From contig LJCX01000019.1 of assembly GCA_001298545.1 (NCBI GenBank), positions 310,001-374,000 of the forward strand: a stretch of DNA of 64,000 nt, written 5' to 3'. The notes beneath the pieces were generated by a model. It was not told where the DNA came from. It ran no database searches and saw only the letters and a list, made by a program, of their open reading frames with translations. The stretch comes from Actinobacteria bacterium OV320 (lineage in GTDB: Bacteria > Actinomycetota > Actinomycetes > Streptomycetales > Streptomycetaceae). Position numbers and translations under genes: made by a program. Below are positions 13,540-18,748 of this stretch, piece by piece (the stretch's first letter is position 1; each line of letters begins with the position of its first letter).

Positions 13540-13589
13540 GGCAGGACCTCCTCTGGGAGTTCGCGTCCCATCTCGGTGGTGCACATGAC

Positions 13590-13715
13590 GACGGCCACGG
13601 GTCTGACTCGCGGTGTGTGCCCCTTCGGGGTACACCGTCCACAGTGGCGCGACCGTGCCGGGTTCTCACCGGCTTCCGTCTCGCCGTCGTCGATATCAGA
13701 GCGACGGTACCGCGT
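13590..13715 (-). promoter_or_regulatory. Cobalamin riboswitch upstream of cbtBA
   Basis: On the minus strand the conserved B12 elements appear in order: GGAAGCCGGTGAGAACCCGG (13679-13660), then the GCGCCACTGT B12-box core (about 13650-13641), then a variable hairpin TACCCCGAAGGGGCA, and finally GAGTCAGACCCG (13610-13597). Spacing matches the known cobalamin riboswitch. The leader ends just before the cbtB ribosome site. Confidence 0.9.
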
Positions 13716-13799
13716 GCCGGGCCGCTGGCCAATACCGCCCCACCTGGCGTGATTCCACTCTCCACGGCCAGGTGGCCCGGATCACCATGCCGGTCCCGC

Positions 13800-18260: not shown

Positions 18261-18414
18261 TCGTACGCCGGTCAGCCGGTCAGCGGGCCGTCCGTCGTGC
18301 GGGATGTTTCCGCCCGCCCGGTGGTCCGGCCGGCTCGCAGAGGCCCGGCACCGGTGAAATCCGAGTGCCCGGCACCGGCCCGGTCCGCTACCGTCTCAGT
18401 CGTGCAGGTGCGCA

Positions 18415-18518
18415 GGCTGCGGATACTTCGCCTGTCAAGCGGGTAACGCGGGTTCGAATCCCGCCGCCGGCCCGGCCGGTGTCGTCCAGTGGCCCAGGAC
18501 TCCTACGTCTCCGCCGCC
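18415..18518 (+). tRNA. tRNA-Asp(GTC)-like sequence with permuted halves
   Basis: The 3' half comes first (18429-18472): anticodon stem CGC, loop CTGTCAA (anticodon GTC), GCGGG, variable TAAC, a perfect T arm (GCGGG-TTCGAAT-CCCGC, 18448-18464), acceptor CGCCGGC and C73. Two bases later the 5' half (18475-18503) has acceptor GCCGGTG, T8, D stem GTCC/GGAC around AGTGGCCCA, T26 and CC. Joined, all four stems pair fully (one T-G in the acceptor), and T8-A14, G15-C48, G18-G19 and TTC are in place. The flanks GGCTGCGGA (18415-18423) and TCCGCCGCC (18510-18518) pair with one mismatch. CCA is not encoded; C73 and T26 are atypical for tRNA-Asp. A relic of two tandem tRNA genes is the alternative. Confidence 0.55.
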
Positions 18519-18748
18519 GACCCTGATCTCTGCACACTCACGGCGCAGGCCGCCCGTCTCGGGGGACGAGGGCGGGCGGCTCGCCTCCCCACGTGCGCGT
18601 TCTCCCGCACAGTTCTTACGTGTCCATGACGCACAGCCCCAACAGCGGCTGCGAGCAGTCGCCTTGAGTGAGGCTGAGGACTCCCCGGCCGACGAGCGAC
18701 ACGCCTCGCCGCCGGGCCAAGGACCACGTCGTGACATCGGGAGTTCTC

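What the first reader, a model, noticed from the sequence alone, without database searches (positions are those of the whole stretch)
18415..18518. tRNA with permuted halves: 3' half precedes 5' half and they rejoin into a perfect cloverleaf
Read directly: 18429-18472 is a 3' tRNA half from position 29 to discriminator C73, with anticodon GTC and a perfect T arm. Two bases on, 18475-18503 is a 5' half from G1 to position 28. Joining them gives complete acceptor, D, anticodon and T stems, and T8-A14, G15-C48 and G18/G19-TTC all present. The break falls between 28 and 29 of the anticodon stem. In addition the leader GGCTGCGGA can pair with the trailer TCCGCCGCC with one mismatch. Permuted tRNA genes are known from some algae and archaea but I know of none in bacteria, where two-piece RNAs are known for tmRNA. 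RNase P cleavage at G1 would leave a nicked two-piece tRNA.
Basis: partly seen in the sequence, partly recalled or inferred. Interest (0 to 1): 0.95.

Follow-up and report, generated by a model that had tools for sequence, protein, structure and literature searches.

The report
Y RNA mimicking a whole tRNA
The "scrambled tRNA" in this Streptomyces-group genome belongs to a family of small-RNA genes most of whose sampled members sit right beside the gene for the RNA-binding protein Ro60, though this copy stands alone; it is predicted to fold into a complete but rearranged tRNA shape and likely works as a tRNA look-alike docked on Ro60, not as a tRNA for making protein.

Summary
Window 18429-18503 holds a 3' tRNA half followed by a 5' half that rejoin into a full cloverleaf. 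It is not a tRNA gene but the head of a longer RNA (18402-18535) whose ends pair into a two-part stem: the layout of bacterial Y RNAs (YrlA type), Ro60 partners already known to be circularly permuted tRNA mimics. Best Rfam hit is YrlA, below its cut-off. Of 197 distinct relatives parsed, 167 lie just upstream of a Ro60 (TROVE) gene, two of them in the window's own genome. The window copy stands alone, with 21 sampled counterparts. Covariation supports the stem and every tRNA arm. New here: these RNAs also carry a complete anticodon arm. The Ro60 stem enters it between nucleotides 28 and 29; pair 28-42 covaries across the junction; the loop keeps CU...AA while the anticodon drifts (Glu, Asp, Cys, Tyr, Gly, Val types among 22 copies). 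Rfam's YrlA model lacks that arm. Expression and binding are untested; the function (Ro60-bound tRNA mimic) is inferred. New variant of a known kind.

The parts
18389..18394 (+). predicted -10 promoter box TACCGT (TANNNT)
   Evidence: TANNNT stands 12 nt (20 copies) or 11 nt (2 copies) upstream of the RNA in 22 of 22 copies; no hit in the generic sigma-70 scan; untested
18402..18535 (+). whole RNA, stand-alone tRNA-mimicking Y RNA (called Y4 here)
   Evidence: model R1 match 137.7 bits over its full length (G000:C20:328401-328536; but R1 was built with this copy); Rfam lax hit YrlA 25 bits, E 0.0046, cut-off 69
18402..18407 (+). P1, outer closing helix 5' strand GTGCAG (pairs with 18530-18535)
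   Evidence: third pair GC 7, UA 7, CG 5, UG 3 in 22 copies; GTCCAG/CTGGAC and TGCCCG/CGGGCA in other copies
18408..18414 (+). conserved internal loop GTGCGCA (candidate Ro60-binding side)
   Evidence: GGTGCG invariant in the 17 rows of A1; binding inferred
18415..18423 (+). P2, upper Y stem 5' strand GGCTGCGGA (pairs with 18510-18518; mismatch at 18418/18515)
18424..18429 (+). conserved TACTTC; its last C is nt 29 of the tRNA body
   Evidence: invariant in the 17 rows of A1
18429..18443 (+). anticodon arm: stem 29-31/39-41, loop CTGTCAA 18432-18438, nt 42-43 at 18442-18443
   Evidence: 7-nt-loop hairpin in 22 of 22 copies; C32 and U33 22/22, A37 20/22, A38 21/22
18448..18464 (+). T arm
   Evidence: read directly; 100% of cells paired in 22 copies
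18465..18481 (+). acceptor stem, 7 bp, closed by a 3-nt loop CCG (18472-18474)
   Evidence: read directly; all cells with letters paired in 22 copies, one cell gapped at one pair and three at another
18484..18500 (+). D arm GTCC/GGAC
   Evidence: read directly; 97.7% of cells paired
18502..18503 (+). nt 27-28, completing the anticodon stem across the junction with 18442-18443
   Evidence: 28-42 is TA 12, CG 9, GC 1 in the aligned 22 copies, highest mutual information of all columns with nt 42, 0 of 20000 permutations
18510..18518 (+). P2 3' strand TCCGCCGCC
18530..18535 (+). P1 3' strand CTGCAC
18549..18580 (+). GC-rich hairpin just downstream, predicted terminator
   Evidence: folds (z -2.02); a perfect stem of 7 or more pairs lies within 75 nt downstream in 18 of 22 copies against 6 of 22 for stretches 600 nt further on; no T run, not called by the scan

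Best explanation
The locus is a stand-alone gene for a bacterial Y RNA that is predicted to fold into a complete, circularly permuted tRNA and likely acts as a tRNA mimic carried by the Ro60 protein, not as a tRNA or two-piece tRNA. Shown by sequence comparison: the RNA's two ends pair into a two-part stem with a conserved internal loop, and its head carries anticodon, T, acceptor and D arms in that order. The acceptor stem is closed by a short loop, so there is no free 3' end for an amino acid without cleavage. The Y stem enters the anticodon stem between nt 28 and 29. Inferred from work on Y RNAs in other bacteria: Ro60 would hold the stem, while the tRNA-like head would be offered to tRNA-binding enzymes or to the nuclease PNPase, steering RNA decay or repair. 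Inferred here: since the anticodon drifts but C32, U33, A37 and A38 stay, something probably reads the shape of the anticodon arm and not its codon meaning. In the window's genome this copy would add to the three Y RNAs (two tRNA-like, one short) beside the Ro60 gene on another contig.
For: Rfam lax scan: best hit YrlA, same arm order. Own genome: one TROVE gene with three tandem Y RNAs directly upstream. Relatives: of 197 distinct tRNA-like RNAs parsed from 147 fetched loci, 167 have a TROVE match starting within 1200 nt downstream on the same strand. Across 295 genomes a strong RNA match (E 1e-9 or better) and TROVE go together: both 130, RNA only 5, TROVE only 17, neither 143; of 28 genomes with an unlinked copy 27 have TROVE. 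Covariation. RNAalifold, given no structure, returns the permuted arms from 22 copies. 28-42 pairing across the junction. Drifting anticodon with fixed loop flanks. Copies with the arm just upstream of TROVE outside Streptomyces: a Bradyrhizobium record, an actinomycete MAG, Gordonia phage VanLee.
Against: The window copy is not beside TROVE (no match in the 64-kb window), and its Rfam score is well under the YrlA cut-off (25 against 69 bits; Ro60-adjacent copies in this genome 34.8 and 37.7). No transcript and no Ro60 or PNPase binding was tested. RNAalifold prefers a local extension of the anticodon hairpin (U-G, then U-A or U-G) over pairs 27-43 and 28-42, so both may exist. One of 28 genomes with an unlinked copy has no TROVE hit, and 5 of 135 genomes with a strong RNA match have none. 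Most copies beyond the first DNA search were found with model R1, built from copies with the arm, so the arm frequencies (79 of 81 Ro60-linked Y1, 22 of 22 window type) are biased upward; the first DNA-similarity search gave 12 of 14 Y1 and 4 of 4 of the window type. Most third (Y3) copies lack a 7-nt-loop hairpin (16 of 83 linked ones have one).
Confidence: 0.9

Rival explanations
1. A true permuted tRNA gene, matured (by ligation or as a nicked two-piece tRNA) and used in translation.
For: Joined halves are called tRNA in 22 of 22 copies; U33 and all arms kept, A37 in 20 of 22; some Ro60-linked Y1 relatives even carry ACCA after the acceptor strand (12 of 81).
Against: Anticodon identity is not conserved; ordinary tRNA-Asp(gtc) present in the genome; conserved end-pairing stem shared with Ro60-adjacent copies; the window copy's cap is CCG, no CCA.
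Confidence: 0.03
2. A relic of tandem ordinary tRNA genes that only looks permuted.
For: Tandem tRNA genes elsewhere in this genome do give weak YrlA hits.
Against: No tRNA called in the window and no outer halves seen on either side; flanking stems covary; -10 box upstream in 22 of 22 copies; the closest of 64 distinct tRNA sequences called in the fetched tRNA loci of this genome is 77% identical to the joined sequence.
Confidence: 0.01
3. A Y RNA descendant that has left Ro60 and now works alone, for example as a free decoy or regulator.
For: Unlinked in 22 of the 25 copies classed as this type, with mostly unshared neighbours; one genome has a copy but no TROVE hit.
Against: 27 of 28 genomes with an unlinked copy have TROVE; the internal loop GGTGCG and P1/P2 are kept; a copy of this type lies 169 nt from TROVE in L156.
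Confidence: 0.06

Closest known systems
YrlA bacterial Y RNA (Rfam RF02553; Salmonella structure 6CU1)
   Same: Ends pair into a Y stem; T arm, short-capped acceptor stem and D arm in permuted order (alignments); circularly permuted superposition of 6CU1 on tRNAs reported in PMC11472068 (passages read); encoded beside Ro60/Rsr in Salmonella (PMC7790460, passages read)
   Different: The Rfam model has a continuous Y stem and no anticodon hairpin; the review PMC8394870 (passages read) lists D, T and acceptor arms. Here a 5-bp anticodon arm with a 7-nt loop is present, and the window copy is unlinked to Ro60. The original papers (Chen 2014, Wang 2018, Sim and Wolin 2018) are not held, so whether they mention such an arm is unchecked
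Circularly permuted tRNA genes of algae and archaea
   Same: 3' half before 5' half, intervening sequence joining the acceptor ends (PMC3978253, passages read)
   Different: Those are spliced at a bulge-helix-bulge into working tRNAs; here the outer ends form a conserved stem and the anticodon drifts
Permuted two-piece tmRNA
   Same: Permuted bacterial RNA with a tRNA-like part (PMC3978253, passages read)
   Different: No tmRNA match at the locus; weak partial tmRNA hits occur only in some relatives
Ro-like proteins with adjacent tRNA annotations in actinophages
   Same: R1 matches just upstream of the Ro-like gene (VanLee 99.6 bits, with the anticodon arm)
   Different: Some are annotated there as tRNAs

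Membership tests
bacterial Y RNA, tRNA-mimicking (YrlA) type | 5' and 3' ends pair to form the Ro60-binding stem | tested here: met
   P1 and P2 covary; that Ro60 binds it is inferred
bacterial Y RNA, tRNA-mimicking (YrlA) type | T, acceptor and D arms in permuted order, acceptor capped by a loop | tested here: met
bacterial Y RNA, tRNA-mimicking (YrlA) type | encoded beside a Ro60/TROVE gene | tested here: not met
   not met for this copy (no TROVE match in the 64-kb window or in the 15, 13.4 and 14 kb loci of three counterparts); met for 167 of 197 distinct relatives and for three RNAs of the same genome. I treat linkage as a usual, not a necessary, feature
bacterial Y RNA, tRNA-mimicking (YrlA) type | binds Ro60 | not testable with these tools
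   co-occurrence only
Rfam RF02553 as curated | score at or above the gathering score of 69 bits | tested here: not met
   25 bits; copies in the 20 relative loci scanned reach at most 59. Hence filed as a variant of the kind, not as a member of RF02553
permuted tRNA gene | conserved amino-acid identity (anticodon) | tested here: not met
   seven anticodons among 22 copies
permuted tRNA gene | bulge-helix-bulge at the junction and splicing | not tested
   no BHB search run; splicing needs an experiment
permuted tRNA gene | mature, charged tRNA | not testable with these tools
   needs RNA work

The most novel reading that the evidence does not exclude
Actinobacteria and their phages make a family of Ro60 Y RNAs that are entire tRNAs cut open and re-closed, with a working-shape anticodon arm whose anticodon is free to change. 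Grafting the Ro60 stem between nt 28 and 29 lets Ro60 hold a full tRNA look-alike that baits whatever attacks or reads anticodon loops (anticodon nucleases, loop-modifying enzymes), and stand-alone copies with their own promoters widen the set of anticodons on offer.
Probability: 0.2. Interest if true: 0.85.

Novelty: new variant of a known kind. Interest (0 to 1): 0.55.

Why it matters
It explains an apparently impossible bacterial permuted tRNA as a Ro60-type Y RNA. It extends tRNA mimicry by Y RNAs to a complete anticodon arm, which makes a concrete test possible: does the Ro60-Y RNA system act on, or against, enzymes that recognise anticodon loops? It also shows Y RNA genes standing alone, away from Ro60, and phage tRNA annotations beside Ro-like genes that overlap matches to this Y RNA model.

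Tried and rejected
Permuted tRNA gene: rejected because the anticodon drifts and the flanks are a conserved stem. Tandem-tRNA relic: rejected, although tandem or single tRNA genes do give false YrlA hits in this genome (C34, C31, C29, C26 hits looked at; the two weakest of the 10 hits were not looked at). tmRNA: partial weak hits only in some relatives. Single-sequence folding gave no signal (z -0.49). Generic promoter/terminator scan found nothing. Looking for conserved neighbours of the stand-alone copies failed: the window's neighbours DUF1775 and DUF1996 gave no hit in 21 counterpart loci of 3 to 15 kb, and only four pairs among the 22 copies clearly share flanking genes, with three short weak pairs besides. 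A search of 246 genomes of the phylum with R1 gave 11 with a match at E 1e-6; seven are of the window's genus (itself included) and the four outside it (42.9-47 bits, L224-L227) lie on ordinary tRNA genes, judged by eye; the strict filters used there may miss weak relatives, and other genera were found by pattern. In A2 six rows of 20-28 bits are loci of ordinary tRNAs and three rows (L026, L007, L006; 36-55 bits) are short Y2 RNAs, so its counts are not used as main evidence. A first regex parse with a wrong anchor was discarded and redone. Four of 197 RNAs had no acceptor stem found by the parser and were left out of the joined-tRNA test, in which 57 of 79 Y3-linked copies were called tRNA; in native order ARAGORN called 16 of 197. 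13 of 147 loci gave no tRNA-like RNA. The parser read one of 22 copies (L163) as A28-A42; the alignment places T there. L207 of the named set was misparsed (acceptor 4 of 7) and is the one CA cell. One listed strong match (G016:C15) was held in L033 and not parsed.

Full report
What is there. ARAGORN finds no tRNA in the native order and calls the joined halves tRNA-Asp(gtc). The RNA as defined by these pairs is 134 nt, 18402-18535; its real ends are untested.

First identification. A lax Rfam scan of 551 bases gives YrlA (RF02553, Y RNA-like) as best hit, 25 bits, E 0.0046, covering T arm, capped acceptor stem and D arm in the same permuted order; the family's cut-off is 69 bits. A bacterial Y RNA structure (6CU1) has been reported to superpose on tRNAs with a circular permutation (PMC11472068, passages read), and a review describes YrlA as a stem of paired ends plus a domain like the D, T and acceptor arms, tethering the Ro60-like protein Rsr to PNPase (PMC8394870, passages read).

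Ro60 link. The window's genome (G000) has one TROVE (Ro60) gene (its two PDB matches are named TROVE domain-containing protein), and directly upstream lie three tandem RNAs of this family: two tRNA-like and one short. They are on contig C23, the window on C20. A DNA search of 61 genus genomes (43 with a match, some of them only ordinary tRNA genes) and then a covariance model R1, built from 17 aligned copies, over 295 genus genomes (166 with a match at E 1e-5 or better) gave the relatives. I fetched 86 further loci for listed matches of 98 bits or more that had no locus yet, leaving out one that overlapped another. From 147 loci parsed, 197 distinct tRNA-like RNAs were read; 167 have a TROVE match starting within 1200 nt downstream on the same strand and 30 do not. 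Strong RNA match (E 1e-9 or better) and TROVE over the same 295 genomes: both 130, RNA only 5, TROVE only 17, neither 143. Weaker matches (E 1e-5 to 1e-9) add 26 RNA-only genomes, which I take to be mostly tRNA look-alikes; these were not examined one by one.

The window type (Y4). Twenty-two of the 30 unlinked copies, the window's among them, share a GTCGTCCAGCGGCC-like D arm. Three linked copies were put in this type by the same rule: L081 is a poor parse, L160 lacks a clean 7-nt hairpin, and L156 is true to type and lies 169 nt from TROVE. A TANNNT box stands 11 or 12 nt upstream in 22 of 22, and a perfect stem of 7 or more pairs lies within 75 nt downstream in 18 of 22 (control stretches 6 of 22). 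Only four pairs of these 22 clearly share flanking genes. An exact pattern for the anticodon and T arms in named genomes gave 52 stretches: Streptomyces mostly, with Planobispora, Planomonospora and Rhizohabitans, a MAG and one Bradyrhizobium record; TROVE matches lie in 9 of these 52 loci. One copy is on a Streptomyces linear plasmid (137.1 bits). That the window is Streptomyces is inferred: contigs of its genus mates match named Streptomyces records in length (for example G016:C3, 825906 bases, and NZ_JACHJK010000003.1).

Structure. On the 22 copies the permuted cloverleaf with Y stem forms 99.5% of 766 cells; 11 of 35 pairs have changes on both sides; 0 of 500 shuffles reach this, and slid structures fall to 36.0-59.7% paired. 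On the first 17 copies it is 94.2% and 13 pairs, despite misaligned D arms. RNAalifold without a given structure finds the same arms.

The anticodon arm. Rfam's YrlA model has a continuous stem where these RNAs have a hairpin. In the window it is CGC-CTGTCAA-GCG with GG (42-43) able to pair with CC (27-28) of the other half. Nt 28 and 42 are TA 12, CG 9, GC 1 in the 22 aligned copies; nt 28 has the highest mutual information of all columns with nt 42, and 0 of 20000 permutations reach it; 27-43 is CG 21, AG 1. These controls do not correct for relatedness. In the 51 distinct named-genome copies 28-42 is TA 26, CG 17, GC 6, TG 1, CA 1 (the CA row is a misparse). RNAalifold instead pairs the U's of TACTTC with 42-43; that local pair fits U-A and U-G but not the one C42 copy, while 28-42 fits all 22. 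Loop: C32 and U33 in 22 of 22, A37 in 20, A38 in 21; positions 34-36 vary, and the joined RNAs read as Glu 8, Asp 7, Cys 3, Tyr 2, Gly 1, Val 1. In 79 Ro60-linked Y1 copies with the hairpin, C32, U33 and A38 are in 79, U36 in 77, A37 in 73. Most of these copies were found with a model that contains the hairpin, so the shares with the arm (79 of 81 Y1, 22 of 22 Y4) are biased; in the set from the first DNA-similarity search it is 12 of 14 for Y1 and 4 of 4 for Y4 (one Y1 lacks it, one has a 6-nt loop). Most Y3 copies lack a 7-nt-loop hairpin (16 of 83 linked ones have one).

Outside the genus. A Bradyrhizobium record (L200) and an actinomycete MAG (L172) have R1 matches (68.3 and 74.6 bits) with the arm just upstream of a TROVE match. 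Gordonia phage VanLee has a 99.6-bit match with the arm upstream of its Ro-like gene, where a tRNA-Arg(tct) is annotated.

How it likely works. By analogy with YrlA, Ro60 would hold the stem, and the tRNA-like head would face PNPase or tRNA enzymes. The capped acceptor stem argues against charging. A fixed loop frame with a drifting anticodon fits recognition of shape, such as bait for anticodon-loop nucleases; the idea that YrlA's tRNA-like domain is a competitive inhibitor of an anticodon nuclease is raised in PMC7790460 (passages read). None of this is tested here.

Known and new. Permuted tRNA mimicry by Y RNAs and their link to Ro60 are known; yrlA has been predicted in some mycobacteria (PMC9569102, passages read), and a TROVE protein of unknown role is noted there (PMC8628891, passages read). 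In the top listings of my searches (several hold more papers than were listed) I saw no paper on Streptomyces Y RNAs or on an anticodon arm in Y RNAs. The three key papers are not held, so this is not a claim that nothing is in print.

Noticed in passing
window 13575-13729 (-): Cobalamin riboswitch above Rfam's cut-off (36 bits).
   Followed up: no
L307:1128-1265, L306:1191-1336, L309:1183-1329: Features annotated as tRNA-Arg(tct), tRNA-Ser(gct) and tRNA-Arg(cct) just upstream of Ro-like genes of Gordonia phage VanLee and Streptomyces phages Alone3 and GiJojo overlap R1 matches (99.6, 36, 39.4 bits) and look like permuted Y RNAs annotated as tRNAs.
   Followed up: partly
L007:1744-1895, L026:1443-1593, L011:1445-1581: Some third Y RNAs beside Ro60 carry a GTGGCGGAA D arm like leucine-type tRNAs, two with a long variable arm; the tRNA-type name is from memory.
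   Followed up: no
Ro60-linked Y1 copies, e.g. L007, L011, L015, L021, L025: The loop capping the acceptor stem begins ACCA in 12 of 81 linked Y1 copies (ACAA in 32), as if a discriminator base plus CCA were encoded.
   Followed up: partly
upstream of Y1 and Y4 copies: An A/T-rich element resembling TAATTCGCGTGC lies about 30-45 nt before many Ro60-linked and stand-alone copies, hinting at shared control; judged by eye.
   Followed up: no
L135, L143, L147, L153: A second stand-alone type with AGG(A/G)GCGGGCTACTTC and a different D arm.
   Followed up: no
L082: Two tandem Y RNAs with no TROVE match in the fetched flanks, although that genome has a TROVE hit elsewhere.
   Followed up: no
G000:C29:498759-498908 (L051, L287): Two adjacent tRNA genes with anticodon-like TCA and CGA and T loops lacking the usual GGTTC.
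   Followed up: no
G196 (L119): A stand-alone copy in a genome with no TROVE hit.
   Followed up: no
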